Source: Tissierella pigra | GTDB lineage: Bacteria > Bacillota > Clostridia > Tissierellales > Tissierellaceae | Assembly: GCF_009695605.1 (NCBI RefSeq) | Contig: NZ_VUNQ01000010.1 | Location: 31,899-95,898, forward strand | DNA: 64,000 nt | Direction of reading: 5' to 3' | Shown: positions 45,455 to 62,189 of the stretch, one piece after another | Layout: every line of letters begins with the position of its first letter | How positions within the stretch are numbered: position 1 is the stretch's first letter | Made by a program: the position numbers and the translations under genes | The notes under the pieces: generated by a model | Seen by the model: only the letters and a program-made list of their open reading frames with translations | What the model was told of the DNA's origin: nothing | Database searches by the model: none

Positions 45455-45482
45455 GGAAATCACAGTGATCCCTCAATTTTTT
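45445..45482. terminator. Bidirectional terminator between the response regulator and mocA
   Basis: AAAAAATTGAGG pairs with CCTCAATTTTTT; inner bases ATCAC/GTGAT extend the hairpin. It overlaps the stop codons of both convergent genes. Confidence 0.85.
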
Positions 45483-46047
45483 ATTTTTTAAATTTCCTTA
45501 AATCTTCTTCATCATCTATATCTATACCAAGTATTTCTTCTTCTATATCTACTTTTTTTACCTTGGACATATTTCTCTTCACAATATCTCTAGCACCTTT
45601 ATCTCCTACTATCTGTAGCAGTTCTTCCCTATATATAGATGAAATAATCATTGGCATACCTCGATTTCCATTATAGTAGGGAACCAACATAGGTAGATTT
45701 GAACTTCTATATTGATAGATTAATTCATTTATTAATTCTGATGTAATAAAAGGCTGATCTCCTACAAAAAACATATACTCAGTATTTAAAGTATTTTTTA
45801 CACCTAGTTTTAGTCCTTCTGACTGTCCTAAGTGAGCGTTCTCATTATAATATGTGTTTATATTATACTTTTCTCCTATTTTCTTTACTTCTTTTTTTCT
45901 ATAGATTAAAATTATCTCATCTAAATCTGACTCTACGCAAGCTCTAATAACTCTCTCTACTATTTTTTCTCCCTCTATATCCATTAGAAGTTTATCTTTT
46001 TTCATTCTCCTTGAAAAGCCTGAGGCTAATATAATTCCTGTAATCAT
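45481..46047 (-). CDS. MocA/MobA-like molybdenum cofactor nucleotidyltransferase
   Basis: Predicted to attach CMP (MocA) to molybdopterin, giving the dinucleotide cofactor used by xanthine dehydrogenase-family enzymes. The 188-residue protein has the nucleotidyltransferase loop ILASGFSRRMKKDKLLM at residues 6-22, FFVGDQPFIT with the metal Asp near 96, and NRGMPMIISSIYREELLQIVGDKGAR, which is typical of MocA-like proteins. It is the last gene of the large minus-strand run that encodes a four-subunit molybdenum hydroxylase, which fits this role. It could also do GMP transfer; the operon argues for CMP. Confidence 0.87.
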   Translation of the reverse strand: MITGIILASGFSRRMKKDKLLMDIEGEKIVERVIRACVESDLDEIILIYRKKEVKKIGEKYNINTYYNENAHLGQSEGLKLGVKNTLNTEYMFFVGDQPFITSELINELIYQYRSSNLPMLVPYYNGNRGMPMIISSIYREELLQIVGDKGARDIVKRNMSKVKKVDIEEEILGIDIDDEEDLRKFKK

Positions 46048-46059
46048 TTTTATCTCCTA

Positions 46060-47637
46060 TTATATAGTCTTAATAAGGGAATCCAGTCCAAGACCTATTT
46101 CGTAAAGCTTTCCTTTTTCATCTGTCAGTGTTAAAAATTTAAACAATTTTCCATCTTCCACTCTTTTTTTTATTGGAGTTACCATATATTCCTTTTTGCC
46201 CTTCTTCAATTCATTAAAACTTGAATCTGCTTCATATAGATTTAAACCTAGAGCAGATTTTTCGTTAGTATATTCTACTACTCCATTGGAATTTGTAACA
46301 TATACGGCATCTACTCCTATATCTTTAATTAATTGATTTATCATATTATCATTTATATCTGTATTATTTCTAAAATATTCCCTTACATCATAGGCTTGCT
46401 TTAACATCTTCTCTTCCATTACTTTACCTACTACGAATTGCTGCATATCGTAAACGTATGTTTTTATCTCTTCCACTACATTATTTAAATCCTTTGATCT
46501 ATTATGTTGTGAAGTAGTCTCTTCTGTAGTCTGTACTATTTGAGCAGTTGTTTCTTCCGAAAACTCATGGATTCTAGTTACATTAGTGGCTATTTCTTCA
46601 ATCATAGAATTATTTTCACCTGTTGATTTCTTTATGCCCTCTAAACTTTCTTTACCTAAGTTTAATGTTTCTACAATGGACATAATTTCTTTATTTGTCT
46701 TTTCTATTATCTCACAGTTTTCGCCCATATATTCCATTTCATTTTCCATAGATTTAGAAATAAATACTATATCATCCTTTAATCTGTTAATTACTTCCCC
46801 TATTTTTTTAGATACAGTTTCTGTTTCATTTGCCAGTTTTCCTACTTCATTGGCTACTACAGAAAATCCCTTGCCATTTTCTCCTGCTCTAGCTGCTTCT
46901 ATAGAAGCATTTAATGAAAGCATCTTTGTTTGATTAGATATTTTATTTATTAAATCTACTAAATTTACTACTTCATCCAAATAGTTTCTTAGTTCTACTA
47001 CCTTCTTTCCACTTTCCTCTACCATAGACTTAGAATTTATTATCCTATTTTCTATGGATGTTATTTCCTCGATTCCATCTTGAGCCGCAGTAATAGAATT
47101 TGATATAAATTGAATCTTATCTATTACATCCTTATCTATATTTTTCATAGACAAATGAACTTTCTCTACTAAATTATTGGTTTCATTAAGCATTTGACTT
47201 TGTTCTACTGCATTGGAATCCGCTACTTCCACTGAAGTGGCTATTAACTCCGCACTTCCTAAGGATTCCATGGCTAAAACAGTTAAATTTTCACATATAT
47301 TAAATATTTCTGTTGAGATTTCTACTTGTGTTTTTAAATTATTCCTTACTTGTTTATATAAATCATGAATCTTTTCTCTAGCTTCTTCAGATATATTTGT
47401 CTTCTCTGTAAAATTAAAATCTAAATTATTTACATTAGACAAATGATTTATTATTTCTTTTAATCCACTATTACCTTTTACTTTTAATAGAGTTAATGAT
47501 AAGCCTATTGAAAGTAATATAGTTAGTCCAATTTGTATGAATTGTCCTTTAAAATACAAAGTAGTTAAATAATTAATCCCCATAAATATAATTGACAAAA
47601 TAAATAATTTAAAAAACTCCCTAGTTCTCTTTCCCAC
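46060..47637 (-). CDS. Methyl-accepting chemotaxis protein with C-terminal sensor domain
   Basis: Two close membrane helices (residues 11-50) without an external sensing domain, then the long coiled-coil signalling region with the hairpin tip [32 protein letters not shown] near residue 240. After the signalling part, residues about 410-525 form an extra cytoplasmic sensor-like domain ([55 protein letters not shown]). The start is GTG at 47637 with AAGGAGG 6 bases before it. The gene is 18 bases behind the molybdenum hydroxylase genes. Internal sensing of a purine or redox signal is a reasonable guess. Confidence 0.87.
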
Positions 47638-47655
47638 AATTTTCCTCCTTGTGTA

Positions 47656-48651
47656 TTATCTATTTTCCTTACATCCCCTTAGGTGCTTTATAAGTTTTTC
47701 TGGTGTCACTGGTAGCTCCTTTATTCTAACACCTACTGCATCATAGATAGCATTTAATATGGCCGGAGCTATTGGTATTGTAACTGGTTCTCCTATACCT
47801 TTAGCACCATAAGGTGCAGTGGGTTCAGGGTCTTCTACTATAATATTATTTATATCTACCATGTCCATAGCTGTTGGTATTAAATACTTTGAAAATCTAT
47901 TATTCTTCATTATTCCTTTATCAAGGTTTAAATCTTCAAATAATGTATATCCTAGTCCCATGGCAAATCCCCCGTCCATTTGTCCTTCTAATAACATTGG
48001 ATTTACTGCACGACCTGCATCTTGAGCAAAGGTGGACTTTAAAATATTGACTATACCAGTTTCAGTATCTACTTCTACTTCTACTGCACAAGCATTAAAT
48101 GTATAAGGCCAATATGGTGCTCCTTGACCAGTTTCTTTATCCATTTCTGTTGTTTGAGCAGTAAACTCTCCTTTTGCTTCTATTATAACATCATTATAAT
48201 ATATTTCAGATAATTTTTTGTACGATATTCTCTTCTGCGGAAAAAAACTTAAAATAACTTCACCTTTCTCTAAGGTTAATCCCGAAGTTGAATTAAGATT
48301 TAATTCTATTTTTGCTTTTTCTAATAATTCTTTCTTCATATTTTCACATGCTATTTTTATGGCATTTCCAGTGTTATAGGTTTGTCTTGTTGCAGCGGCT
48401 GTTCCTGAATCTGGCATTAAAGATGTATCTTCATGAACTAAATCTATATTCTCTATATCTATATCTAGGACTTCAGCACCAATTTGTCTCATTGAAGTTT
48501 TAGCACCCTGTCCCACTTCTGTAACTCCACAATATATTCCAATTCTACCTGCTGGCAGAAGCTTGATTATTGCCCTTGATACATCTGGAAATCCGTTGCC
48601 ATATCCTGTTCCATAATATGAAAGTCCTATACCTTTACCAATTTTTTTCAT
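47656..48651 (-). CDS. Molybdenum hydroxylase, molybdopterin subunit, C-terminal half (NdhM-like)
   Basis: 331 residues matching the second half of the xanthine dehydrogenase molybdopterin subunit. It has the cofactor-binding Gln segment GVTEVGQGAKTSMRQIGAEVL, GTAAATRQTYNTGNA, and the catalytic base Glu in APYGAKGIGEPVTIPIAPAILNA near residue 290. It overlaps the N-terminal-half gene by 4 bases (ATGA), which looks like designed coupling rather than a fresh frameshift. The sizes 331 and 423 closely match NdhM and NdhL of the nicotinate dehydrogenase of Eubacterium barkeri, in which the subunit is naturally split. Substrate here is more likely hypoxanthine or another purine, from the neighbours. 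Confidence 0.87.
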   Translation of the reverse strand: MKKIGKGIGLSYYGTGYGNGFPDVSRAIIKLLPAGRIGIYCGVTEVGQGAKTSMRQIGAEVLDIDIENIDLVHEDTSLMPDSGTAAATRQTYNTGNAIKIACENMKKELLEKAKIELNLNSTSGLTLEKGEVILSFFPQKRISYKKLSEIYYNDVIIEAKGEFTAQTTEMDKETGQGAPYWPYTFNACAVEVEVDTETGIVNILKSTFAQDAGRAVNPMLLEGQMDGGFAMGLGYTLFEDLNLDKGIMKNNRFSKYLIPTAMDMVDINNIIVEDPEPTAPYGAKGIGEPVTIPIAPAILNAIYDAVGVRIKELPVTPEKLIKHLRGCKENR

Positions 48652-49919
48652 ATAGATTCCACCTCCAATTTCCTTGAAAACTGAAATTCCTTATCTACTG
48701 CCTCTATACATTTATCTAAAGGCACACTATCTGTTAATATTTGACCTGTTGCTGTCATAGATCCTTTTCTAAATATATTTTTCATTCTAATTTCAATAGG
48801 ATCCATACCTAGCTTTACTGCCAATTCATCTATTTGCTGTTCATAGGCAATGGATACTTGTGTTGCACCAAATCCCCTCATGGCACCTGTAAAAGGATTA
48901 TTTGTATATACTGCATAACTGTCTACATTTACATTCGGTATTACATAAGGCCCTGTTGCGTGTACCCCTGCCTTTCTAAGTACGTTTATTGCCCAAGAAG
49001 CATGGGCACCAGAATCTCCAATTATTTCTGCCTCCATATATTGAAGGAATCCATTTTCATCTGCTCCTGTTTTATATTTCATAACCATAGGATGGCGTTT
49101 TGAATGGGCTAAGAAGGATTCTTCTCGAGAAAATATAATCTTTATTGGTCTTCTTAGCACTATTGCTGCCAATGCTAAATGGATTTGAACTGATATATCC
49201 TCCCTCGCTCCAAATGCCCCACCTATATTTGTATTGATTACCTTTATTTTTTCCTCTGGTAATCCTAAATTAATGGCTATTTCTTCTCTATCGTAATGAG
49301 GATATTGGGTAGCCACTGCTACAACTACTGTACCATCTTCTTCTAAATAGCTTAGTCCTGCCTCTGGCTGTAAAAAAGCATGCTCAACCATAGGAGACCT
49401 ATATATGTTTTCAACTATATATTTGCACTTTTTCTTGCCTTCTTCTATATCTCCATGTCTTAATTTATAGTGAAGGATTATATTTGAGTCTCCGTGAACT
49501 ATAGGAGAATCTTCTTTCATAGCTTCTATGGGATCAAAAACTGCATTTAACTCCTCATAATCCACTATAATTTTTTCATATGCTTCCTCACAAATCTCTT
49601 GTGTTTCACCTACTATAAAAGCTATAGGTTCTCCTATTCTAACAACCTTTTCACTAACAAATACTTCATGGTCTTTTAAAACTACTCCATATTTATTTTC
49701 CTTTGGTACATCTTTATAGGTAAAGATTTTTAATATACCCTTTACCTTTTCAGCTTCTGTAATATCCACTTTTATCTTTCCATGGGGTTTTGTTGACCTT
49801 AATACTTTTCCATAAACCATGTCTTCTAGATATATATCTTGAGGGTATAAAGCCTTTCCTGTAACTTTTGAATAGGCATCTACCCTAATGATGTTTTTGC
49901 CCACTACATTTAAGTCCAT
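48648..49919 (-). CDS. Molybdenum hydroxylase, molybdopterin subunit, N-terminal half (NdhL-like)
   Basis: 423 residues: the small N-terminal a/b hammerhead domain (DAYSKVTGKALYPQDIYLEDMVYGKVLRS) followed by the first molybdopterin-binding domain, with TNIGGAFGAREDISVQIHLALAAIVLRRPIK and FTGAMRGFGATQVSIAYEQQIDELA. The Glu of GAFGARED and the Arg of AMRGFG occupy places where xanthine dehydrogenase binds purines. The chain stops cleanly where the C-terminal half begins. Start codon ATG overlaps the stop of the iron-sulfur subunit gene by one base. The operon order FAD, FeS, L, M equals ndhFSLM. Confidence 0.87.
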   Translation of the reverse strand: MDLNVVGKNIIRVDAYSKVTGKALYPQDIYLEDMVYGKVLRSTKPHGKIKVDITEAEKVKGILKIFTYKDVPKENKYGVVLKDHEVFVSEKVVRIGEPIAFIVGETQEICEEAYEKIIVDYEELNAVFDPIEAMKEDSPIVHGDSNIILHYKLRHGDIEEGKKKCKYIVENIYRSPMVEHAFLQPEAGLSYLEEDGTVVVAVATQYPHYDREEIAINLGLPEEKIKVINTNIGGAFGAREDISVQIHLALAAIVLRRPIKIIFSREESFLAHSKRHPMVMKYKTGADENGFLQYMEAEIIGDSGAHASWAINVLRKAGVHATGPYVIPNVNVDSYAVYTNNPFTGAMRGFGATQVSIAYEQQIDELAVKLGMDPIEIRMKNIFRKGSMTATGQILTDSVPLDKCIEAVDKEFQFSRKLEVESI

Positions 49920-50392
49920 TATTTTCCCTCCTCCATATATTCAATAGCCTTCTCTGCTGCATAAATCATTTTATTATAGCCTGTACACCTACATAGATTT
50001 CCCGATATTCCTTCTCTAATTTCATCTTTTGAAGGATGAGGTTTTTTATCTAATAGAGCCTTAGTGGATAAAACCATTCCTGGAATACAGAAACCACATT
50101 GCACTGCTCCAACATCTATATATGCCTGTTGTATTGGGTGGATTTTTCCTTCCTTCTCCATTCCTTCTATTGTTAAAATATTACTTCCATTTGCTTGAAA
50201 TGCCATGACTAAACAGGAGTTTACAGTTTCTCCATCCATGATTACAGTACAAGCCCCACATTCACCTTCTCCACAGCCTTCTTTAGTTCCTATTAATCCT
50301 AATTCATCTCTAAGTAAATCTATGAGCCTTAGATTTTCACTTACAGAAACTTCAAATAGTTTTTCATTTACTATTAAACTTATATTTACCAT
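49919..50392 (-). CDS. Molybdenum hydroxylase, [2Fe-2S] subunit
   Basis: Electron-transfer subunit of 157 residues with two clusters. The plant-ferredoxin-type N-terminal cluster uses CGEGECGACTV plus Cys in VNSCLVM; the C-terminal cluster uses GAVQCGFCIPGM and NLCRCTGYNKM. This matches XdhC of xanthine dehydrogenase and NdhS of nicotinate dehydrogenase. It overlaps the FAD-subunit gene by 7 bases. Confidence 0.95.
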   Translation of the reverse strand: MVNISLIVNEKLFEVSVSENLRLIDLLRDELGLIGTKEGCGEGECGACTVIMDGETVNSCLVMAFQANGSNILTIEGMEKEGKIHPIQQAYIDVGAVQCGFCIPGMVLSTKALLDKKPHPSKDEIREGISGNLCRCTGYNKMIYAAEKAIEYMEEGK

Positions 50393-51252
50393 GCTCTCAC
50401 CTCAGTTCTAGTTTTTATAAATTCCTTAAGATTTTCTCTAAGAATACTAGATACAGCTACTCTTTTATATGGTAAAGTTGACCTTCCTTTTAGTCTTTCG
50501 TCCATAGAATTTTGTAATACTGTGATTGCTTCTTCTATTGTAGTTTCATTTATTTCTTTATTGATTAAATATTCTTCTACTTCTTTTTCTCTCATAGGGT
50601 ATTTTCCCAATGCTCCACTGGAAATTGTGACATTTTCGATTAGTCCTTCTTCATTTAATTCGATTAAAGATGCGATTGATAGTCTGGATATGGCTAAAGC
50701 TTTTCTAAGTCCAAGCTTTGCAAAGTTTAGATTTTGATTTTTATTAAGTTTTTCAAATTTTATTTCTGTTATAATTTCATTTGATTTTAATTTATTTATA
50801 TAATAATCCTCTAAAGGTATTTCCCTAGTTCCTTCTATACTACATATTTTTATTATAGCTCCTAAAGCTATTAAAGGAGGTATGCTATCTGCTGCTGATG
50901 AGCCATTTGCTATATTTCCTCCTATGGTTCCTTTATTCCTTATTTGTGGAGAACCCACCATTTTACAAGCTTTATGTAATCCATGTAGATTTCCCTTGAA
51001 CAATGGATTTTCGGTTATTTCAGTGAAGGTAACTCCTGAACCCAATATAATATGATTTTCGTCTTCTTTTATCTTTTTTAGTTCCTCTATCTTACTTATA
51101 TCTATCAAAATTTTAGGTGTTATTTTCTTATTTTTCAGCTCAATAACTATATCTGTTCCGCCAGAAATGAGCTTTGCTTCACTTCCATATTCCCCCAATA
51201 ATCCTACTACTTCCTCAACACTCCTGCTATTATATACTTCTTTTAAGGTCAT
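50386..51252 (-). CDS. Molybdenum hydroxylase, FAD-binding subunit
   Basis: Carries FAD and passes electrons from the iron-sulfur clusters to an acceptor such as NAD or ferredoxin. The FAD motifs are AKLISGGTDIVIELKNKK near residue 28 and NKGTIGGNIANGSSAADSIPPLIALGA near residue 107; the CO-dehydrogenase flavoprotein C-terminal domain follows. From the ATG at 51252, preceded by GAGGGGTGA, it has 288 residues. First of four subunit genes, and separated from the permease upstream by a terminator, so it probably has its own promoter or depends on read-through. Confidence 0.94.
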   Translation of the reverse strand: MTLKEVYNSRSVEEVVGLLGEYGSEAKLISGGTDIVIELKNKKITPKILIDISKIEELKKIKEDENHIILGSGVTFTEITENPLFKGNLHGLHKACKMVGSPQIRNKGTIGGNIANGSSAADSIPPLIALGAIIKICSIEGTREIPLEDYYINKLKSNEIITEIKFEKLNKNQNLNFAKLGLRKALAISRLSIASLIELNEEGLIENVTISSGALGKYPMREKEVEEYLINKEINETTIEEAITVLQNSMDERLKGRSTLPYKRVAVSSILRENLKEFIKTRTEVRAW

Positions 51253-51282
51253 ATCTTCACCCCTCATAGGATTTTTTGTTTT

Positions 51283-51315
51283 AAAAAAGCCACCCCCAAA
51301 AGAGGCGGCTTTTTA
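51283..51315 (-). terminator. Terminator between the purine permease and the molybdenum hydroxylase genes
   Basis: AAAAAGCC-G-CC pairs with GG-T-GGCTTTTTT on the minus strand, ending in six T residues. Divides the 16-kb run into two parts. Confidence 0.8.
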
Positions 51316-51358
51316 ATAAGTATTATTTTTTAGTAAACAGTTATACCAATTATGATTA

Positions 51359-52813
51359 TTATTCAATAAATGCTAGTATTACAAAGTTTAATATAAATAG
51401 TGCTGATGATACTATTAAAATAGGATGTACATCTTTCATTTCCTTTTTACATGCTTTAACTAATAAATAGAAAATAAATCCTGCTGCTATACCATAAGAA
51501 ATACTATAGCATAAAGCCATAAATATACCTGCAAAGAAAGCTGGTATTGCTTCTTCAAAATCATCCCATTTAATTTCACTAAAGGATGAAAGCATCATAA
51601 TACCAACTACTATTAAAGCTGGTGCTGTTGCTTCTGCAGGAACTATACCTGCAACTGGTGCCAAGAAAATTGCCAGAATAAACATAATTGAAGTAACAAC
51701 AGATGTTAATCCTGTACGACCGCCTGCACCGATTCCAGCTGCACTTTCAACATAAGTTGTAGTATTGGAAGTACCAATTAATGCACCAATGGAAGTTGCT
51801 ATAGCATCTGCAAATAATGCTTTATCCATTTTAGATTTGAATCCTGTGCTTTCTTCCATAGCCTTTTCATCTTCAGCACTAAAAATGCCGCTCTTACGTC
51901 CAGTACCAATAAAAGTTCCAATAGTATCAAATGTATCAGATAAACTGAATGCAAAAATTGTCATCAGAACTAGAGGAATTTTAGCAGGGTCAGAGAATAA
52001 GGAAAGCATTCCTTCTCTACCTAATGCAACTCCTATGGTTGAACCTAATTCCTTAAATGAATCACCAACTCCAGCAGTTGCACCTAATGTAGAAACATCT
52101 ACAACTCCCATAGGAATACCTATTAATGTAGTTCCTATAATACCTATTAAGATTGCTCCCTTTACCTTAAATATTAAAAGTACAAAAGTTAAAACTAATC
52201 CAATTAAAGCTAATAAAACACCTAAATTGTTAAAGTTTACAAGAGCTGGAACTGCAGCTGCATTAGAAATAACTGTACCACCATCTAAAATAATATTATC
52301 TCCCGGATTAGACGTGAAGTTAATGAAACCTGCATTTTTAATACCAATGTAAGCTATGAAAATACCTATACCACCACCAATTGCATTTTGCAAACTAAGA
52401 GGTATTGATTTAATTATAGACTTACGAATCTTTGTTACTGTAATAAATATATTTACCATACCACAAACGAAAACCATAGCTAATGCTTGCTGCCAAGTAA
52501 AACCTAAACTAAATACTACCGTATAGGTGAAAAGTGCATTTAAACCCATACCTGGTGCTTGCGCATAAGGAACATTAGCAAACAATGCCATAACTAATGT
52601 ACCAATTACTGCAGCAAATATTGTTGCAAGAAATACTGCCCCCCACGGCATACCTGTTTGTGCTAACATTGATGGGTTAACAAAGATGATATAAGACATT
52701 GCAAAGAATGTAGTCAAACCTGCTACAATTTCATTTGATACAGTTGTACCATTTTCCTTTAGCTTAAATTGTTTTTCAAAAAAACCACCATTTGAAGCTT
52801 TTTGACTAGACAT
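51359..52813 (-). CDS. NCS2-family purine permease (PbuG/AzgA type)
   Basis: Proton-coupled importer for hypoxanthine, guanine or adenine of the AzgA branch. 484 residues with about twelve helices. Recognised motifs: AGLTTFFAMSYIIFVNPSML near residue 30, NVPYAQAPGMGLNALFTYTVVF near 82, SLSDTFDTIGTFIGTGRKSG near 290 and GTSNTTTYVESAAGIGAGGRTGLTSVVTS near 340. It lies between adenine deaminase and the molybdenum hydroxylase genes, supplying their substrate. Confidence 0.92.
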   Translation of the reverse strand: MSSQKASNGGFFEKQFKLKENGTTVSNEIVAGLTTFFAMSYIIFVNPSMLAQTGMPWGAVFLATIFAAVIGTLVMALFANVPYAQAPGMGLNALFTYTVVFSLGFTWQQALAMVFVCGMVNIFITVTKIRKSIIKSIPLSLQNAIGGGIGIFIAYIGIKNAGFINFTSNPGDNIILDGGTVISNAAAVPALVNFNNLGVLLALIGLVLTFVLLIFKVKGAILIGIIGTTLIGIPMGVVDVSTLGATAGVGDSFKELGSTIGVALGREGMLSLFSDPAKIPLVLMTIFAFSLSDTFDTIGTFIGTGRKSGIFSAEDEKAMEESTGFKSKMDKALFADAIATSIGALIGTSNTTTYVESAAGIGAGGRTGLTSVVTSIMFILAIFLAPVAGIVPAEATAPALIVVGIMMLSSFSEIKWDDFEEAIPAFFAGIFMALCYSISYGIAAGFIFYLLVKACKKEMKDVHPILIVSSALFILNFVILAFIE

Positions 52814-52912
52814 AATACTCCTCCTTTTATTTGATTTTAAATACTATCCTCCTTTCTTTTCTATATCTATTTAGTATTATACTAAATTTTTTTAAATAAC
52901 TGTAGTAAATTC

Positions 52913-54724: not shown

Positions 54725-54742
54725 AAAGCCTATCTCTCCCTT

Positions 54743-55030
54743 CTATTTATTGCCTAATAGGCTTTTATTTATATCTATTTCATCTATTATACCTACTATG
54801 GAAGCATCTATAGGTGAATCCATTTTTCTTGCAGCAATTCTAGAGGCTGTTCCTGTAACAAATGCTACTAATTCTCCTATACCTGCACCTACAGTATCTA
54901 CAGCAATAATGGATTCTCCCAATGGATTCAAATCTAAATCTAGAGGCTGTGTAATCATCAGCTTAGTTCCTATTAGCTTTTCATCTTTTCTTGTGGCTAC
55001 AATTGTTCCAATTACTCTACCGATTTTCAT
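54743..55030 (-). CDS. Microcompartment vertex protein (BMC-P, EutN/CcmL family)
   Basis: Pentamer that caps the vertices of a bacterial microcompartment. 95 residues with MKIGRVIGTIVATRKDEKLIG, the conserved AVDTVGAGIGELVAFVTGTASRIA and PIDASIVGIID at the C-terminal end. It is the only BMC-P gene in the window. Located between the flavoprotein gene (11 bases) and adenine deaminase. Confidence 0.94.
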   Translation of the reverse strand: MKIGRVIGTIVATRKDEKLIGTKLMITQPLDLDLNPLGESIIAVDTVGAGIGELVAFVTGTASRIAARKMDSPIDASIVGIIDEIDINKSLLGNK

Positions 55031-55041
55031 ACTAAGCCTCC

Positions 55042-55803
55042 TTATATCATTTCTATTTTTATATTTTTGGCTGAAGCTTTATCTCTAGCCAAATGAGTTA
55101 CTATTGCTCCCTTAGGTAAGATCAATTTGCTATTTGAAGATAAATTTAGTATATCTTTTTCTGTTATTACTTTTTTATCTGGATTTTCTTCTGATTTAGA
55201 ATTTGATTTTATATTTTCATCCTCTACTCCTATTACTATATTTTCTGTGTATTTATTATGTTCTATCTCTATTGCCCCCATTTTCTTGGCTCTGTCCATG
55301 TGTCCCTCTAGTATAGACAATATCTCTTTATTGTTGGTTTCTTCTCCTAAATAATTCTTTACTCCTTCAAAGTCCATATATACATTTTTACTTTGGTACA
55401 TAAATGTCCATATTAAATTGGGGACAAAGGAGTCTATCATTCCTAGGGATATTTTAGAAATTGTATTTACAGTTATATTTGGGCAAATTATTCCAGAATA
55501 ATTTCTTGAAATTTCTTTTAGCCTTACAATATCTGACTCTCCATAAATATTTCTAGGAGACAAAATATTAGTAATCTTTCCTATATCCAATATTTGCTCT
55601 GCCATAAAAGAAAAAGCTAAAGATATTTTTATTCCTTTATTTTTTAGACATTTTATTTCTTCTATCTTTTTGTCTAAATTGTTATTAGAACCATTAAAAG
55701 CTACTATTATGGATTCTTTATTTCCTTGATTCCATTTGTTGTCTCCATTTAAAAGCCTTTTAGATATATCCTCCAATACATTTGAAGTTATCCTTGTTTT
55801 CAT
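55042..55803 (-). CDS. Microcompartment-associated flavoprotein-like protein
   Basis: 253 residues with weak similarity in layout to Firmicute ethanolamine-type microcompartment proteins of unknown role and to the flavoprotein (UbiX/Dfp) fold: IIVAFNGSNNNLDKKIEEIKCLKNKGIKISLAFSFMAEQILD, and YSGIICPNITVNTISKISLGMIDSF, which recalls the phosphate- or flavin-contacting Asn/Thr loops. The last 40 residues, ITEKDILNLSSNSKLILPKGAIVTHLARD, match a short module that I know from several microcompartment-associated proteins. Flavin binding is inferred. It lies between hexamer and pentamer genes and is therefore likely to be part of the organelle. Confidence 0.65.
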   Translation of the reverse strand: MKTRITSNVLEDISKRLLNGDNKWNQGNKESIIVAFNGSNNNLDKKIEEIKCLKNKGIKISLAFSFMAEQILDIGKITNILSPRNIYGESDIVRLKEISRNYSGIICPNITVNTISKISLGMIDSFVPNLIWTFMYQSKNVYMDFEGVKNYLGEETNNKEILSILEGHMDRAKKMGAIEIEHNKYTENIVIGVEDENIKSNSKSEENPDKKVITEKDILNLSSNSKLILPKGAIVTHLARDKASAKNIKIEMI

Positions 55804-55819
55804 CTAAAACACTCCAATG

Positions 55820-56098
55820 TTATTCATATTGTTTTAAGATAACTCTTTCCACTTCTGCATGTGGTCTTGGTATTACATGAACGGAGTGAAGTTCTCCTAC
55901 ATTTCTAGCGGCTTCTGCTCCTGCATCTACTGCTGCCTTCACTGCACCTACATCTCCTCTAACCATTACTGTTACAAGACCAAATCCAATCTTTTCGTAT
56001 CCTACTAAAGTAACGTTTGCAGCCTTTACCATAGCATCTGCTGCCTCTATACTACCTACTAATCCTTTAGTTTCAACTAATCCTAATGCTTGACTCAT
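55820..56098 (-). CDS. Microcompartment hexamer shell protein (BMC-H) 1
   Basis: A 92-residue PduA/EutM-type shell tile: [59 protein letters not shown] and the C-terminal [11 protein letters not shown]. The pore loop reads KIGFGL where the common sequence is KIGSGL, so a Phe replaces the small residue lining the central pore. Together with two other BMC-H genes it should build the facets. Confidence 0.96.
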
Positions 56099-56138
56099 AA
56101 TTTATTCCTCCTTATGGATTTCTTATTCTATATTTTAT

Positions 56139-56504
56139 TTATTTTTTGTTTTCTTCTTTATTTTCTTGCTTTGCCACTTTCTTTGTTTCCTTCTTATTGA
56201 CTTTATTTTTTACATTTTTAGCAAACTTAGATATTAGTGCATCTACTTCATCATGAGGTCTTGGGATTACATGAGATGAAAAAATTACTCCTACTCTATT
56301 TCCCGCAGTTACTGCTGCATCTACTGCCGCTTGAACTGCTGCCACTTCTCCTGCTATTTGAATATTTACTCCCACAGATTTACCTACTCCTATGATTTTC
56401 TCAAATCCAACTAAAGTTACATCAGCAGCTTTACTAGCCGCATCTAAGGCTGTAACTGCTGTAGTTAAACCTAATGCTTCTATAAGTCCCAATGCTTTAT
56501 TCAT
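56139..56504 (-). CDS. Microcompartment hexamer shell protein (BMC-H) 2 with charged tail
   Basis: 121 residues: a BMC domain (residues 3-90; ALGLIEALGLTTAVTALDAASKAADVTLVGFEKI; SSHVIPRPHDEVD) followed by about 25 residues of Lys/Glu/Asn repeats (VNKKETKKVAKQENKEEN). The pore region is altered and longer: GFEKIIGVGKSVGVNIQIAG instead of [16 protein letters not shown]. The tail probably projects from one face and may bind cargo, nucleic acid or other shells. Second of three hexamer genes. Confidence 0.94.
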   Translation of the reverse strand: MNKALGLIEALGLTTAVTALDAASKAADVTLVGFEKIIGVGKSVGVNIQIAGEVAAVQAAVDAAVTAGNRVGVIFSSHVIPRPHDEVDALISKFAKNVKNKVNKKETKKVAKQENKEENKK

Positions 56505-56520
56505 TTCACACCTCCCATTA

Positions 56521-56751
56521 CTAACGGTTATTTTTTACTCTTTCCGCTGCTTCCTCTAAGGTTATTGCTTTTACTCCATTTACTTCTTCTATTACTTGTC
56601 TTTCCCTGTTTATTATATCTGAGATTATTCTACTTTCTCCGCCGTATAGATTCCCTACATTACTAGTTTTGTTTTGTACCATGTTGCTTATTATAGGTCT
56701 ATTTCCATTGATTATATTGCCCATGGCAATTCTAGATAAAGGATTTGCCAT
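56521..56751 (-). CDS. Small unknown protein encoded among shell genes
   Basis: A 76-residue protein I do not recognise. The N-terminal part (MANPLSRIAMGNIINGNRPI) is mildly hydrophobic; residues 40-76 form a likely amphipathic helix (RIISDIINRERQVIEEVNGV and ITLEEAAERVKNN). No Cys and no membrane segment. It lies 16 bases after shell gene 2 and 2 bases before shell gene 3, so translation is coupled to the shell. Candidates are a shell-interior adaptor or a cargo-docking protein. ATG is in frame with an adequate GTGGTGA site. Confidence 0.72.
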   Translation of the reverse strand: MANPLSRIAMGNIINGNRPIISNMVQNKTSNVGNLYGGESRIISDIINRERQVIEEVNGVKAITLEEAAERVKNNR

Positions 56752-56753
56752 AA

Positions 56754-57035
56754 TTATTCACCACCATCAAAATCAAATATTTTATCTACTTCATCATGAG
56801 GTCTTGGAATTACATTAGCAGATACTACTTCTGCTACCATTGCACCTCGTTCTTTTCCTGTCTCTACTGCAGCGGTTACTGCTGCCACATCTCCCGTTAC
56901 TGTAACAGAAACTAATCCAGAGCCTACTATTTGAAAATCCATAATCTTTACACTGGCAGCTTTTGTCATAGCATCTGCCACTTCAAGAGCCGCAACAAAT
57001 GACTTAGTTTCAACCATTCCTATAGCTTCTCTCAC
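56754..57035 (-). CDS. Microcompartment hexamer shell protein (BMC-H) 3
   Basis: A 93-residue BMC domain: EAIGMVETKSFVAALEVADAMTKAASVKIMDFQIVGSGLVSVTVTGDVAAVTAAVETG, ending SANVIPRPHDEVDKIFDFDGGE. The pore loop is QIVGSGL, a third variant within this locus, and the tail is acidic. First shell gene in the transcript, 16 bases behind the UbiD-type decarboxylase gene. Confidence 0.95.
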   Translation of the reverse strand: MREAIGMVETKSFVAALEVADAMTKAASVKIMDFQIVGSGLVSVTVTGDVAAVTAAVETGKERGAMVAEVVSANVIPRPHDEVDKIFDFDGGE

Positions 57036-57051
57036 TTACCTCACCAACTTT

Positions 57052-58389: not shown

Positions 58390-58410
58390 TTATATTCTCC
58401 CTCCTTATAC

Positions 58411-58968
58411 TTATTGTCCTGTCCATCTATTAACTAGGTCATTGTCTATTTCTAAAGCATCTAATATTCTTCCTGTCATATTAAATACTATATCTTCTAT
58501 AGTTTCTGGATGATTGTAAAATCCTGGACTTAGTGGAAATATGGTTACATTCATTTTAGAAAGCTTTAACATATTCTCTAGGTGTATGGAGCTTAATGGA
58601 GTTTCTCTAGGTACTAAAATTAGCTTTCTTCCTTCTTTTATAGTTACATCACAGGCACGGGCTATTAAAGAATCAGAAAAGCCATAGGCAACAGAGGATA
58701 ATGTCTTCATGGAGCAAGGCAATACTATCATTTTATCTACCTTAAAAGAGCCACTGGCTATAGGTGCTGCAAAGTTTTTATTATCATGATAATATGTTGC
58801 TAAGGATTTTAATTCTTCTAAGCTTACTCCACATTCATGTTCCGTTACATACTCCCCCATGGTGGAAACTACAAGATGAGTTTCGATATTTAATTCTTTT
58901 AATGCCTTTAGAAGAGAAATAGCATAAATAGATCCACTACCTCCAGATACTCCAACTACTATTTTCAT
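58411..58968 (-). CDS. ubiX: UbiX-family flavin prenyltransferase
   Basis: Makes prenylated FMN for UbiD enzymes. 185 residues with VGVSGGSGSIYAISLLKAL (FMN loop), MIVLPCSMKTLSSVAYGFSDSLIARACDVTIKEGRKLILVPRETPLSSIHLENML, and the C-terminal MTGRILDALEI. All match the family closely. It sits 21 bases upstream of the UbiD gene, the usual pairing. Confidence 0.94.
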   Translation of the reverse strand: MKIVVGVSGGSGSIYAISLLKALKELNIETHLVVSTMGEYVTEHECGVSLEELKSLATYYHDNKNFAAPIASGSFKVDKMIVLPCSMKTLSSVAYGFSDSLIARACDVTIKEGRKLILVPRETPLSSIHLENMLKLSKMNVTIFPLSPGFYNHPETIEDIVFNMTGRILDALEIDNDLVNRWTGQ

Positions 58969-58996
58969 CTTTTTTCCTCACTTTCTATGTACTAAT

Positions 58997-59017
58997 TAGG
59001 CGGTCTTTGACCGCCTA
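58997..59017 (-). terminator. Intercistronic hairpin after the isochorismatase-like gene
   Basis: TAGGCGGTC and GACCGCCTA pair around AAA/TTT. No T-run follows on the minus strand, so probably a partial terminator or mRNA stability element within the operon. Confidence 0.55.
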
Positions 59018-59020
59018 TTA

Positions 59021-59632
59021 TTATTCTACTTTATTTTCTGGATCTCCTCCACCTGTCCATGGATCTAAACCTTTTTCCCAAGCATCTTTATATTCATCGA
59101 AATCCATTAACTTTGTAAATATACTTAAATCTTTCAAACCATTTTCGTGCATTTCTTCAGTCTTAGAGTGAATTGCATCTGTAAGTGAAATAACCTTATA
59201 TGCCCTAGCTAAAGCATCTGTAGCAGTTGACCTTACACATACATTAGTCCAAGTACCAGTTACAACAACAGTATCTATATTCTCTTCTCTTAAATAAAGG
59301 TCTAGATCAGTATAAGCAAATCCACTATGTCTTCTTTTCTTTACTATATATTCGTCTCCCTCAGGCTTTAATTCAGGAACAAAGTCTGAACCCCAAGTTC
59401 CATCTACTGCATGAACTGGTCTTACTTTAAAGTCTGCATCATTTTTTCTATGGGCTTCTTGAATATGAACTAATTGCACATCATCATTTCCATTAGCATT
59501 TCTCTCTCTTACCCATTTAAAAATCTCTTGCAGCTTTGGAGTTATTATTGCTGTTCCCTCACAGAATAAAGCTCCCTTTGGATTAGCAAAATCATTTAAC
59601 ATATCTATTATTAAAATCGCATGTCTAGCCAT
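59021..59632 (-). CDS. Isochorismatase-fold amidohydrolase (cysteine hydrolase)
   Basis: 203 residues, the fold of ureidoacrylate hydrolase, N-carbamoylsarcosine amidase and triuret hydrolase. The triad can be seen: Asp in ILIIDMLNDF (residue 10), Lys in YIVKKRRHSGF (near 98), Cys in TGTWTNVCVRSTATDAL (near 131). The C-terminal tail WEKGLDPWTGGGDPENKVE is unusual. The type of reaction known for this family, release of ammonia and CO2 from a ureido or carbamoyl group, fits removal of the ureido group from 4-ureido-5-imidazolecarboxylate. That assignment is inferred from the operon alone. Confidence 0.86.
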   Translation of the reverse strand: MARHAILIIDMLNDFANPKGALFCEGTAIITPKLQEIFKWVRERNANGNDDVQLVHIQEAHRKNDADFKVRPVHAVDGTWGSDFVPELKPEGDEYIVKKRRHSGFAYTDLDLYLREENIDTVVVTGTWTNVCVRSTATDALARAYKVISLTDAIHSKTEEMHENGLKDLSIFTKLMDFDEYKDAWEKGLDPWTGGGDPENKVE

Positions 59633-59651
59633 CTATATTCCTCCTATATTC

Positions 59652-61250
59652 TTAAAACTTTATTTGTCTTGGTAAAATTTGAATACTTTGTCTCTTTACG
59701 AATTGTCCAAATCCTGGTTTAATCATGATTCCATCAATATTTCTTATATGTTTATCTATTACTTCAGGATGTTCTTTTCTATAACTCTTTTCATACTCTG
59801 CACTATGGGCATGAGGATAGTTTTCAAATATTCTACTATATTTTTCCTCTACTCTCTTTGGATAGTTGTGAACTATTTCCTCCAGTTCATTATCTGTTAA
59901 ATCTCTTAATTTACTTTCTTCTACATCTTTAAATACTAAATGTCCACGAACTATGGTTTGAGCTACTTTTCCTGTTAGTTCCATTCCTTCCAATGGAGTA
60001 TATCCACACATAGATGCTTGAGTCTTAGGATCTATGGTCCATTTCTTTTCTAAATCTATTATAGTAAAGTCTGCATCTGAGCCTATGTTCATTGCACCTT
60101 TCTTTGGATATATTCCATAATGGATTGCAGCATTCTTACTTAATATATCAACTAGTTTACTTAAAGATATTCTTCCTTTATTGTAACCTTCACTTACAAT
60201 AATAGGAACCATAGTCTCTACTCCAGGTATTCCAGGAAATGCAGTCCAGATATTCATTCCTTCTTTTGCTTTTTCACTTTCTATTTCATAAGGAGCATGG
60301 TCTGTGGCTATGAAATCAATACTTCCATTGTTTATTCCTTCCCATTGCTCTTCATTATCTTTTTTAGTTCTAAGAGGTGGAGCTATTTTTGCACAAGCAC
60401 CATGCTTTGTCATAGCGTCTTGATAATTTAATGTTAAATAGTGAGGACAGGATTCTGATGTTACGTTTAATCCTCTTTTCTTCGCATCCCCTACTAATTT
60501 AGCACCTATTCCTGTACTCATATGGACTATATGAAGTCTTGCTCCTGAATCTTCAGCAAAACTTATACCTAACTCTATGGCAACTTTTTCTGCCAATTCC
60601 ATTCTGGCTTCTGCCCAAGCAGGTCCATCCATTCTTCCTTCTTCACGGAATTTATTTACATAGTAGTCACACATAGAATAATTCTCTGCATGAATTCCTA
60701 TTGGAAGTCCTGTTTTTGCTACTGCTTTAAAAGCTTCGTACATTTCTGGGTCTGTAACTCTAGGGAAAGTAGGTACTGAAGGTGTCATATATGCTTTAAA
60801 TGCTACTACTCCATAGTCTGCCTGTTCTTGTACATGGTCTAGCCACCCTTCTCTTACATCTTCTCCTGTTACTCCTCCCCACATGGCAAAATCCACTAAA
60901 GCCTGAGGTTTAACTAAATCCAATTTCAACTCTAATTGTTCCACACTTCTTGCAGATGGTACAGAACAACAAGGCATATCAATAATTGTAGTTACTCCAC
61001 CACGAGCAGCAGCTGCTGTACCTGTTAGGAAGTTTTCTCTATGAGGAAATCCTTGATACATAAAATGGGTATGGGAATCTATACATCCAGGTAAGGTTAA
61101 GTTACCTTCTGCATCTATTATTTCCTTTGCCTCTATACCATCAATATTATCTAGGAATCCAGCAATTTTTTCATCTTTTACTAAGATATTAGTAAGTACA
61201 GTGTCATCGTTTTGAGGAATTCTTGCATTTTTTATTATTACATCATACAT
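59652..61250 (-). CDS. Hydantoinase/allantoinase-type cyclic amidohydrolase with C-terminal extension
   Basis: Ring-opening metal hydrolase of the dihydroorotase superfamily, 532 residues. Metal sites: LPGCIDSHTHFMYQG (HxH) near residue 61, carboxylated Lys in VAFKAYMTPSV near 152, His in HAENYS and RLHIVHMSTG, and Asp in IDFIATDHAPYE near 318. About 80 residues beyond the usual end (after TIVRGHLVF) form a helical, charged extension with NYPHAHSAEYEKSYRKEHPEVIDK and end RQSIQILPRQIKF. As first gene of the microcompartment run it is the candidate for xanthine ring opening; hydantoin, allantoin or dihydropyrimidine are alternatives. Confidence 0.86.
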   Translation of the reverse strand: MYDVIIKNARIPQNDDTVLTNILVKDEKIAGFLDNIDGIEAKEIIDAEGNLTLPGCIDSHTHFMYQGFPHRENFLTGTAAAARGGVTTIIDMPCCSVPSARSVEQLELKLDLVKPQALVDFAMWGGVTGEDVREGWLDHVQEQADYGVVAFKAYMTPSVPTFPRVTDPEMYEAFKAVAKTGLPIGIHAENYSMCDYYVNKFREEGRMDGPAWAEARMELAEKVAIELGISFAEDSGARLHIVHMSTGIGAKLVGDAKKRGLNVTSESCPHYLTLNYQDAMTKHGACAKIAPPLRTKKDNEEQWEGINNGSIDFIATDHAPYEIESEKAKEGMNIWTAFPGIPGVETMVPIIVSEGYNKGRISLSKLVDILSKNAAIHYGIYPKKGAMNIGSDADFTIIDLEKKWTIDPKTQASMCGYTPLEGMELTGKVAQTIVRGHLVFKDVEESKLRDLTDNELEEIVHNYPKRVEEKYSRIFENYPHAHSAEYEKSYRKEHPEVIDKHIRNIDGIMIKPGFGQFVKRQSIQILPRQIKF

Positions 61251-61493
61251 AATTTTTCCCCCTTCTAAATTAATTTTGTATTAATAATAACACATTAATA
61301 AAAAATAAGCCTTGTTAGTTTACTATAAAAATATACTAAAGAATTGAATTTAATACCAATTTTTTTGTTAGTTTTTTATAATTTTTTGTATATCTTTTAT
61401 ATATGATTTAAATTAACAATTAGTTATAATAAAAATTAAATAATACACATATCTATATATGATGTAGCAAAATATTATTGGGGAGGAGATTTT

Positions 61494-62189
61494 ATGACAT
61501 TGAAATTAATTGACCTATCTCAAGAAATTTATCAAGGTATGGATATTTTTCCAATGCACCAACAAACCTTTATAATGACAAATATGACCCATGAGGAGAA
61601 TATGCAGAAAACAGGAAGTAAAAAATTAGGGTTTTCTGCTAGGAATTTACTTATTAGTGAACATGGCGGCACTCACAGTGATGGAGTATGGGAGTATAAC
61701 CCTAATGGACCTACTATTGATAAAATGCCTTTAGAATATTTTTGGGGTTCAGCCATATGTATAGACTTATCCCATATAAGATATCCTAATTATTTTGAAC
61801 CAAAGGATTTGGAGGAAGCTTTGAGACGTTCTGGACAAGAAATAAAAGAAGGAGATATTGTACTAATTCATACTGGACACCATGACAGAGCCTTTGGAAC
61901 AGATTTATTTCAAAAAGAATATGCAGGACTAAGCTATGAAGGGGCAAAATGGTTAGCAGAAAAAGGAGTAGTAAATATTGGAGTAGATGCACCTGCAATA
62001 GACCAAACTCCTGATGATATTGATTTTTCAGCTCATTTAGTCTGTGGAGAGTATAATATAACCAATACAGAGAATTTGTGTAATTTAGACAAACTAATAA
62101 ATAAGAGATTTCTATATATTGGATTGCCTTTAAAAATAAGAGATGGTACAGGCTCACCAATTAGGGCAGTTGCTTTATTAGAGGAATAG
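61494..62189 (+). CDS. Cyclase-family metal-dependent hydrolase (kynurenine formamidase-like)
   Basis: 231 residues of the cyclase family (PF04199), which includes kynurenine formamidase and isatin hydrolase, enzymes that open cyclic or formyl amides with a Mn or Zn centre. It starts LIDLSQEIYQGMDIFPMHQQTF and has the metal motif SEHGGTHSDGVWEYNP near residue 56, IVLIHTGH near 122 and VVNIGVDAPAIDQTPDDIDF. It diverges from the microcompartment run with 243 bases between the two starts, which must hold both promoters. A likely step is opening of the imidazolone ring. ATG follows GGGGAGGAG. Confidence 0.88.
   Translation: MTLKLIDLSQEIYQGMDIFPMHQQTFIMTNMTHEENMQKTGSKKLGFSARNLLISEHGGTHSDGVWEYNPNGPTIDKMPLEYFWGSAICIDLSHIRYPNYFEPKDLEEALRRSGQEIKEGDIVLIHTGHHDRAFGTDLFQKEYAGLSYEGAKWLAEKGVVNIGVDAPAIDQTPDDIDFSAHLVCGEYNITNTENLCNLDKLINKRFLYIGLPLKIRDGTGSPIRAVALLEE

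What the first reader, a model, noticed from the sequence alone, without database searches (positions are those of the whole stretch)
45481..62189. A purine-degrading bacterial microcompartment locus without aldehyde chemistry
Seen: one BMC-P, three BMC-H, a flavoprotein-like and a small unknown protein lie in one run with a cyclic amidohydrolase, an isochorismatase-fold hydrolase, UbiD and UbiX, adenine deaminase, a purine permease and a molybdenum hydroxylase, plus a divergent cyclase-family hydrolase. Known: purine-fermenting clostridia convert xanthine by ring opening to 4-ureido-5-imidazolecarboxylate, loss of the ureido group, decarboxylation to 4-aminoimidazole, deamination and opening of imidazolone to formiminoglycine. 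Inference: adenine deaminase -> molybdenum hydroxylase -> amidohydrolase (xanthine ring) -> isochorismatase-like (ureido group) -> UbiD (decarboxylation) -> cyclase-family enzyme (imidazolone ring). Comparative surveys have, as I recall, listed similar loci as microcompartments of unknown function or for xanthine use; the enzyme assignments here would be largely untested.
Basis: partly seen in the sequence, partly recalled or inferred. Interest (0 to 1): 0.95.

Follow-up and report, generated by a model that had tools for sequence, protein, structure and literature searches.

The report
Purine-fermenting shell organelle with disordered tether

Summary
In detail: 45481-62189 holds three BMC-H, one BMC-P, UbiX/UbiD, a cyclic amidohydrolase, an isochorismatase-fold hydrolase, a cyclase-family hydrolase, an adenine-deaminase-family enzyme, a purine permease and a molybdenum hydroxylase, with no aldehyde enzyme. 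It is a member of the published Xau/BUF1 type (Axen 2014; Ravcheev 2019); a xanthinase-pathway gene cluster was reported in 2023. New here: (1) the BMC locus lies in Clostridium acidurici and G. purinilytica, classic xanthine fermenters, each with one UbiD only, in this locus; (2) 61 of 63 fetched xanthinase loci with UbiD carry shell genes, and 56 of 57 with all four shell genes keep one order; (3) the "adenine deaminase" follows BMC-P in 55 of 55 loci with room and is better read as the missing 4-aminoimidazole deaminase; (4) the "small unknown" (56521-56751) belongs to an unnamed, fast-evolving, mostly disordered family in the same slot (63 distinct members), present in 40 of 41 xanthinase genomes of the order, modelled as three separate short helices: a likely cargo-shell tether. 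Counter-evidence: a published table scores T. praeacuta or T. creatinophila xanthine-negative, although T. praeacuta has the locus. No activity or shell was tested.

The parts
61494..62189 (+). cyclase-family (PF04199) metal hydrolase, divergent; predicted 4-imidazolonase
   Evidence: PDB kin by sequence include kynurenine formamidase and isatin hydrolase; H57, T60, H61, D63 invariant in 63 of 63 rows
59652..61250 (-). cyclic amidohydrolase (allantoinase/hydantoinase-like, 532 aa); predicted xanthine amidohydrolase (xanthinase)
   Evidence: H60, H62, K152, H187, H243, D317 invariant in 81 of 81 rows; 75% identical to the C. acidurici protein P0067
59021..59632 (-). isochorismatase-fold cysteine hydrolase; predicted 4-ureido-5-imidazolecarboxylate amidohydrolase
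   Evidence: 324 bits to PDB 3hb7; D10, K99, C132 invariant in 75 of 75 rows
58411..58968 (-). UbiX flavin prenyltransferase
   Evidence: TIGR00421 235 bits
57052..58389 (-). UbiD decarboxylase; predicted 4-amino-5-imidazolecarboxylate decarboxylase
   Evidence: only UbiD found in the genome; R147, E250, E255 invariant in 69 of 69 rows
56754..57035 (-). BMC-H shell protein H1 (GSG at the pore)
56521..56751 (-). 76-aa slot protein; predicted multivalent cargo-shell tether of a mostly disordered family
   Evidence: position-blind HMM test; found in 40 of 41 xanthinase genomes of the order; AF2 three separate helices, low confidence; no Pfam or NCBIfam match
56139..56504 (-). BMC-H shell protein H2 (loop insertion, lysine-rich tail)
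55820..56098 (-). BMC-H shell protein H3 (EutM-like; GFG at the pore)
55042..55803 (-). TIGR02536/PduM-type accessory protein: N-terminal helix, linker, UbiX-like domain, PduM-like C-terminus
54743..55030 (-). BMC-P vertex protein (EutN/CcmL family)
   Evidence: PF03319 E 3.4e-31
52913..54724 (-). adenine-deaminase-family enzyme; predicted 4-aminoimidazole deaminase
   Evidence: directly after BMC-P in 55 of 55 loci with room (by script 54; L062 by its coordinates); split from AdeC-type enzymes of the same genomes in the tree
51359..52813 (-). purine permease (PF00860)
50386..51267 (-). molybdenum hydroxylase FAD subunit
49919..50392 (-). molybdenum hydroxylase 2Fe-2S subunit
48648..49919 (-). 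molybdenum hydroxylase Mo subunit, N-terminal half
47656..48651 (-). molybdenum hydroxylase Mo subunit, C-terminal half
46060..47637 (-). methyl-accepting chemotaxis protein; role in the system not shown
45481..46047 (-). MocA-like molybdenum cofactor cytidylyltransferase
   Evidence: TIGR03310 162 bits, below the cut-off of 186

Best explanation
The window holds a conserved cluster of genes for three BMC-H and one BMC-P shell proteins, a cyclic amidohydrolase, an isochorismatase-fold hydrolase, UbiX, UbiD, an adenine-deaminase-family enzyme and a divergent cyclase-family hydrolase, which together would likely break xanthine down to formiminoglycine within a predicted protein shell, with a small protein predicted to tether cargo to the shell. 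Proposed order, each step inferred from family and gene context: purines enter by the permease and the molybdenum hydroxylase turns hypoxanthine or urate into xanthine; the amidohydrolase opens the pyrimidine ring to 4-ureido-5-imidazolecarboxylate; the isochorismatase-fold enzyme removes the ureido group; UbiD, with prenyl-FMN made by UbiX, decarboxylates 4-amino-5-imidazolecarboxylate to 4-aminoimidazole; the adenine-deaminase-family enzyme deaminates it to 4-imidazolone; the cyclase-family enzyme opens the ring to formiminoglycine. Outside the shell a formiminotransferase and a cyclodeaminase, encoded elsewhere in the genome (contig C13), would pass the formimino group to tetrahydrofolate and give glycine. 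This chemistry would need no NAD, CoA or electron carrier in the lumen, which fits a shell without BMC-T; what is kept in would be the unstable 4-aminoimidazole and 4-imidazolone (instability recalled, not from a call). The 76-aa slot protein, with three short helices on flexible linkers, is predicted to bind shell and enzymes at once.
For: Gene order UbiX-UbiD-H1-H2-H3-BMC-P-ADE in 56 of 57 loci with all four shell genes, among 80 loci kept of 147 relatives. Shell genes in 61 of 63 loci with UbiD. C. acidurici (G018, protein P0067 at 100%) and G. purinilytica (G019) have the shell locus and each, like the window's genome, one UbiD only, in this locus; both ferment xanthine (table in PMC5737214). 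Catalytic residues invariant (roles recalled). A PucR-type purine regulator within reach of 48 of 80 loci and a formiminotransferase in 42 of 80; FTCD_N/FTCD and FTCD_C genes in the own genome. Shell-less XAH-ISO pairs in Thermosyntropha (L069, L070) make these two likely consecutive steps. Xanthinase gene cluster identified according to PMC12507026. Slot protein: 44 of 44 HMM hits at E < 1e-3 lie in the slot; found in 40 of 41 xanthinase genomes against 3 of 208 others (the profile holds members from some of these genomes).
Against: I found no activity, expression or particle data for this organism. Table 1 of PMC5737214 scores 'T. praeacuta or T. creatinophila' negative for xanthine and uric acid, yet T. 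praeacuta DSM 18095 carries the whole locus (L020). Ravcheev 2019 appears to give the two ring-opening roles the other way round (mapped by synteny only). G. purinilytica grows on adenine, yet only enzymes of the locus clade were found there at E <= 1e-30, so this clade may still deaminate adenine. Shell-less exceptions: L076 has XAH, ISO and a 44% UbiD without shell genes; L029 lacks them too (contig with broken genes). C. acidurici and G. purinilytica hold a second XAH outside the shell locus, C. acidurici with a second CYC. Enzyme lengths give no hint of a terminal shell tag. The window's own slot protein is not called disordered by the charge-hydropathy rule, and its middle helix is hardly more amphipathic than shuffles.
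Confidence: 0.8

Rival explanations
1. The shell serves another N-heterocycle (hydantoin, creatinine, allantoin, pyrimidine or an aromatic acid); xanthine is only the nearest textbook pathway.
For: The amidohydrolase scores best against allantoinase, hydantoinase and dihydroorotase models; the UbiD's best PDB matches by sequence are 6h6v/6h6x (recalled as the furandicarboxylate decarboxylase HmfF); a Tissierella with the locus may be xanthine-negative.
Against: Purine permease, molybdenum hydroxylase, PucR and formiminotransferase accompany many of the loci; two obligate purine fermenters carry it with their only UbiD; a xanthinase gene cluster was identified in Clostridia and Bacilli according to PMC12507026.
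Confidence: 0.1
2. The deaminase in the locus is a true adenine deaminase feeding adenine in, and 4-aminoimidazole is deaminated by another enzyme or without one.
For: TIGR01178 score 486.6, over the cut-off of 472.5; G. purinilytica uses adenine with only this clade found.
Against: Directly after BMC-P in 55 of 55 loci with room; C. acidurici and E. angustum do not use adenine and C. acidurici has the gene; the own genome has a separate AdeC-type gene (616 bits, C55); no other deaminase family was matched in the run; Ravcheev's XauE appears to be the same gene in the same role.
Confidence: 0.2
3. The slot protein is not a scaffold but a small regulator, chaperone or shell-capping factor that happens to be largely disordered.
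For: No binding data; mid-helix hardly more amphipathic than shuffles (mean moment 0.317 against 0.265, sd 0.130); low AF2 confidence.
Against: All 44 hits of the blind test lie inside the shell gene block; short conserved motifs on linkers of variable length, as expected of a tether; in L086 and L087 the slot holds a protein with two BMC-type domains and a helix-like N-terminus.
Confidence: 0.3

Closest known systems
Xau (xanthine utilization) BMC, Ravcheev 2019 (PMC6620236); BUF / BUF1 of Axen 2014 and Sutter 2021
   Same: Shell genes with two ring-opening hydrolases, amidohydrolases, carboxy-lyase, deaminase, dehydrogenase and permease; no metabolosome core enzymes.
   Different: The two ring-opening roles are, by synteny, assigned the other way round here; the formiminotransferase lies on another contig; no BMC-T (Axen names BMC-T among BUF genes); the slot protein is not described in the passages and the section I read; supplements were not open to me.
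Xanthinase pathway of purinolytic clostridia (Rabinowitz and Pricer 1956; Tong 2023; both as cited in PMC12507026)
   Same: Same predicted reactions; C. acidurici carries a 75%-identical amidohydrolase and the same cluster.
   Different: PMC12507026 has no mention of microcompartments; whether Tong 2023 mentions the shell is unknown to me (paper not held).
CsoS2, disordered scaffold of alpha-carboxysomes
   Same: Works like: low-complexity chain with conserved short motifs, encoded among shell genes, predicted to link cargo and shell.
   Different: No sequence kinship shown; short (70-260 aa); in a catabolic compartment.
Encapsulation-peptide proteins of metabolosomes
   Same: Short terminal helix on a flexible linker (slot protein; N-terminus of the PduM-type protein).
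   Different: No folded cargo domain attached to the slot protein; three helices in a 76-aa chain.
Ethanolamine (EUT) BMC, also in this genome (contig C24)
   Same: EutM- and EutN-type shell parts and a TIGR02536-type protein (family named for ethanolamine utilization) shared.
   Different: The C24 locus has EutB, EutC, EutL, EutD and acetaldehyde dehydrogenase; none of these is in the run.

Membership tests
Xau/BUF1 BMC | BMC-H and BMC-P shell genes | tested here: met
Xau/BUF1 BMC | No aldehyde dehydrogenase, PTAC or alcohol dehydrogenase in the locus | tested here: met
   none among the 19 genes of the run
Xau/BUF1 BMC | Two ring-opening hydrolases, isochorismatase, carboxy-lyase, deaminase, molybdenum dehydrogenase | tested here: met
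Xau/BUF1 BMC | Formiminotransferase in the locus (absent in two Bacillus loci of Ravcheev) | tested here: not met
   in the genome but on contig C13; within reach of 42 of 80 relatives; not defining by Ravcheev's own data
Xau/BUF1 BMC | BMC-T gene (named by Axen for four Firmicutes) | tested here: not met
   none on this contig; 2 of 65 related loci have one; I take it as a description rather than a definition, so membership is kept
Xanthinase pathway | Candidate gene for each of five steps | tested here: met
   families and invariant catalytic residues
Xanthinase pathway | Activity on xanthine and imidazole intermediates | not testable with these tools
   needs assays
Canonical metabolosome | Aldehyde-generating signature enzyme plus aldehyde dehydrogenase core | tested here: not met
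CsoS2-like scaffold | Intrinsically disordered | tested here: inconclusive
   43 of 63 by charge-hydropathy, the window's copy not among them; AF2 pTM 0.23, pLDDT 67
CsoS2-like scaffold | Homology to CsoS2 | tested here: not met
   no Pfam or NCBIfam match of any kind; in the protein database 4 of 29 matches bear a name, hypothetical or uncharacterized; no direct comparison with CsoS2 was run; works-like claim only
CsoS2-like scaffold | Binds both shell and cargo | not testable with these tools
   needs binding assays
Adenine deaminase (AdeC) | TIGR01178 score over cut-off | tested here: met
   486.6 against 472.5; the locus copies of G018, G019, G016 and G017 fall below, 457-468 bits
Adenine deaminase (AdeC) | Groups with AdeC-type enzymes | tested here: not met
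   other side of a 100/100 branch from the five AdeC-type rows; no characterised AdeC was in the tree, and the tool warns of long branches

The most novel reading that the evidence does not exclude
Anaerobic xanthine fermentation, worked out in clostridia in the 1950s as soluble biochemistry, is carried out in an organelle, and that organelle is built by a new class of multivalent disordered tether (the H1-H2 slot protein) that does for a catabolic microcompartment what CsoS2 does for the carboxysome.
Probability: 0.45. Interest if true: 0.82.

Novelty: new member of a known kind. Interest (0 to 1): 0.6.

Why it matters
Hydrolytic and decarboxylating chemistry inside a BMC, without aldehydes or redox cofactors, would be a third use of these organelles (proposed by Axen and by Ravcheev). 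Finding the locus in C. acidurici and G. purinilytica turns that prediction into something testable in organisms whose xanthine fermentation is established, and would help explain why C. acidurici has 'adenine deaminase' genes but does not use adenine. A conserved tether of 70-260 residues would be a compact tool for loading enzymes into engineered shells. Purine clearance by gut bacteria is of interest for gout.

Tried and rejected
Xanthine or purine riboswitch: no Rfam match in the window at gathering thresholds. Shell-specific extensions on the enzymes: lengths are alike in loci with and without shell genes held, and the ~60-aa insertion near the C-terminus of the amidohydrolase is also present in the C. 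acidurici and G. purinilytica copies outside the shell locus and missing from many copies inside one, so it is not taken as a targeting signal. Promoter- and terminator-like sites show no clear excess (96 against 83.7, sd 10.6; 8 against 7.4). C. cylindrosporum could not be checked: it is not among the names in the 120 proteins listed of 676 by a UbiD search. The L040 MAG titled Andreesenia angusta has 33% G+C in the stretch held against 43.7% reported for the E. angustum genome, so I do not count it as that species; unnamed G016 (41.5% in the stretch, 2.3 Mb) fits better but is not proven. Reading the PduM-type protein as a second prenyltransferase: fold alike but too distant to claim.

Rows dropped before counts: the scan kept 80 of 147 relatives; ORFs under 40-45 aa were ignored; UbiD hits under 40% identity were not counted as UbiD; 'with room' means at least 1.9 kb beyond BMC-P. 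From the slot family were left out the slots of L086, L087 and L097 (other proteins), L096 (no ORF of 40 aa there) and two duplicates; the first-picked ORF of L089 was replaced by the one the profile found. The HMM test set contains at least two slot sequences identical to training ones (L116 = L040, L123 = L024). The profile A2 used across the order was built from 32 members, many of them from genomes of that order. The motif patterns were written after seeing the sequences: N motif 53 of 63, middle motif 29 of 63, C-terminal motif 16 of 63, against 1, 10 and 0 of 2700 control ORFs; descriptive only. The third 'adenine deaminase' of C. acidurici (377.6 bits) was not placed in the tree.
Full report
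What is there. On the minus strand from 61250 down to 45481 lie an amidohydrolase (XAH below), an isochorismatase-fold hydrolase (ISO), UbiX, UbiD, BMC-H H1, a 76-aa unknown, BMC-H H2, BMC-H H3, a TIGR02536/PduM-type protein, BMC-P, an adenine-deaminase-family enzyme (ADE), a purine permease, molybdenum hydroxylase subunits, a chemoreceptor and MocA; a cyclase-family hydrolase (CYC) is divergent at 61494-62189. No aldehyde enzyme is in the run. By protein identity the host is Tissierella-like: Tissierella names stand among the nearest relatives of XAH and ADE.

It is a known type. Axen 2014 (PMC4207490, passages) named such loci BUF, 'a third BMC paradigm?', listing amidohydrolases, deaminase, carboxy-lyase, isochorismatase and formiminotransferases. 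Ravcheev 2019 (PMC6620236, passages and the section on xanthine) predicted xanthine use (Xau). Sutter 2021 (PMC8217296, passages) lists BUF1, and PMC8156839 (passages) describes a BUF1 as a compartment for potential xanthine degradation, after Ravcheev. PMC12507026 (passages) states that the gene cluster of the 'xanthinase pathway' was identified by Tong 2023 in Clostridia and Bacilli with a xanthinase kcat of 0.1 per s; I could not read Tong 2023. From recall of its abstract: four hydrolases of different families and a prenyl-FMN decarboxylase, which would be this gene set. So the locus is a new member of a known kind, and its enzymology may be largely known.

Conservation. A scan of species genomes with a xanthinase alignment (A1) gave 147 relatives, of which 80 loci were kept. 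Sixty-three hold a UbiD of at least 40% identity, and 61 of these also shell genes. The two without are L029, a contig with broken genes, and L076 (Thermosyntropha lipolytica), which has XAH-ISO-UbiD and no shell gene in the following 7.9 kb. In 56 of 57 loci with all four shell genes the order UbiX-UbiD-H1-H2-H3-BMC-P-ADE holds on one strand; the 57th (L030) lacks ADE in the DNA held. Loci with shell genes also come from records titled Brenneria (L090), Rhodospirillales MAG (L096) and Calditrichales (L078).

Two classic purine fermenters have it. Searching 249 genomes of the order found xanthinase in 41 (E <= 1e-100). G018 matches the C. acidurici protein P0067 at 100% and has its contig length; G019 has the contig lengths of the two G. 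purinilytica proteins. Both carry the shell locus (L112 complete; L113 complete from XAH to ADE, its contig ending before any CYC). In L112 a PucR-type regulator, a cyclodeaminase (FTCD_C) and a xanthine permease follow. Each of G018, G019, G016 and the window's genome has exactly one UbiD match, the one in this locus. C. acidurici lives on xanthine, urate, guanine and hypoxanthine but not adenine (PMC3519856, passage); G. purinilytica also uses adenine (PMC4582583, first part of the text); PMC5737214 gives the comparative table (passages). PMC3519856 and PMC5737214 contain no mention of 'microcompartment' (search listing), and the searches 'acidurici + microcompartment' (4 papers) and 'microcompartment / xanthinase' (1 paper) found none that joins the two subjects, judged from the listings; only open-licence papers were searched. 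This is the strongest new support for function: in organisms known to run the pathway, the only UbiD sits among shell genes.

Enzyme assignment. Catalytic residues (roles recalled from the families) are invariant: XAH 81 of 81, ISO 75 of 75, UbiD 69 of 69, CYC 63 of 63 rows. Ravcheev made Amet_4587 the xanthine opener and Amet_4584 the imidazolone opener; read by synteny, 4587 would be CYC and 4584 XAH.

The deaminase. ADE directly follows BMC-P in 54 of 55 loci with room by script, and in the 55th (L062) too once its upstream start is allowed for. In a tree of 70 sequences the locus enzymes and three paralogues (own C57, and one each of G. purinilytica and C. acidurici) are split by a 100/100 branch from five AdeC-type enzymes, among them the window genome's own on contig C55; the tool warns that long branches meet there, and no characterised AdeC was included. 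C. acidurici has the gene but no adenine growth. I therefore assign 4-aminoimidazole deaminase, as Ravcheev did with XauE. Against this: G. purinilytica uses adenine, and only two genes, both of the locus side, were found there, so adenine activity in this clade is not excluded.

The slot protein. Between H1 and H2 nearly every locus has a small, poorly alignable ORF. A profile trained on 20 loci plus the window, then run blind to position over 5564 ORFs of 81 other loci, gave 44 hits at E < 1e-3; 41 are the slot ORF by script and the other three (L049, L078, L089) lie directly after H1 or between the two shell genes by their coordinates; the next hit is at E 0.81. At least two of the 44 are duplicates of training sequences. 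Across the order's 249 genomes a slot hit occurs in 43 and xanthinase in 41, with 40 shared; the profile there includes members from some of these genomes, and of the three slot-only genomes one hit (G086, inside a 664-codon frame, E 4e-4) is probably chance. The 63 distinct members are 70-260 aa; the consensus has an N-terminal MANPLARVxMxNI, a middle NLxxKEExLLxxII and a later ITLxELA-like motif, some longer forms repeating the last one, and 16 of 63 with a VSLxSIGK-like motif. By charge-hydropathy 43 of 63 count as disordered, against 0 or 1 for each other locus protein family; the window's copy does not. AlphaFold2 with 32 sequences gives three separate helices (4-16, 37-51, 65-74) and no fold (pLDDT 67, pTM 0.23). 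The N-helix is more amphipathic than shuffles (0.428 against 0.270, sd 0.131; 53 segments, 34 above mean plus one sd), the middle one hardly (0.317 against 0.265, sd 0.130; 29 segments, 8 above). No Pfam or NCBIfam match; of 29 database matches the four named are hypothetical or uncharacterized. In L086 and L087 the slot instead holds a protein with two BMC-type domains and a helix-like N-terminus. I read the slot protein as a multivalent tether between cargo and shell; binding is untested.

The PduM-type protein (55042-55803) is modelled (pLDDT 87, pTM 0.67) as an N-terminal helix on a linker, a UbiX/PPC-decarboxylase-like domain and a small PduM-like end. A terminal helix on a flexible linker is how PMC12339742 (passages) describes encapsulation peptides; its function is unknown.

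Completeness of the pathway. The genome holds two formiminotransferase matches: one with histidine-degradation genes (C75: HutH, HutI) and one with a cyclodeaminase (C13); the C13 type is found in 42 of 80 xanthinase loci. So formiminoglycine could be taken on to glycine and folate-bound C1 units outside the shell.

What weighs against. A table in PMC5737214 scores 'T. praeacuta or T. creatinophila' xanthine- and urate-negative, while T. praeacuta DSM 18095 has the whole locus (L020). Either the entry refers to T. creatinophila, or growth as sole carbon source fails although the pathway serves for nitrogen, or the substrate differs. No shell, expression or activity for any of these loci was shown in what I read, apart from the xanthinase work quoted from Tong 2023.

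Noticed in passing
own genome contig C24 (L120): A separate ethanolamine BMC locus (EutB, EutC, EutL, EutS-like, EutD, acetaldehyde dehydrogenase): the host has two BMC types and could mix shell parts.
   Followed up: partly
55820-56098: BMC-H3, the most conserved protein of the locus (mean 90% identity), has GFG at the pore in 60 of 68 copies, where the usual motif is GSG (usual motif recalled).
   Followed up: partly
47656-49919: The Mo subunit of the hydroxylase is split into two ORFs overlapping by 4 bases; the same split is seen in L026.
   Followed up: partly
L111, L114 (C. acidurici, G. purinilytica), L128, L129: A second XAH outside the shell locus in both (C. acidurici with a second CYC), and second ADE copies of the locus clade: perhaps a soluble branch of the pathway.
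   Followed up: partly
L086:14327-15301, L087:5920-6900: Protein with two BMC-type domains and a long N-terminal extension that begins with an encapsulation-peptide-like helix, in the slot of the small tether.
   Followed up: partly
42502-45454: Sensor kinase with an amino-acid-binding-type domain and an NtrC-type regulator (read from the sequence) on the plus strand beside the locus; whether they control it is unknown.
   Followed up: no
L029: A Tissierellia MAG contig with XAH, UbiX, UbiD, PduM pieces and ADE but no shell genes: a shell loss or an assembly fault.
   Followed up: no
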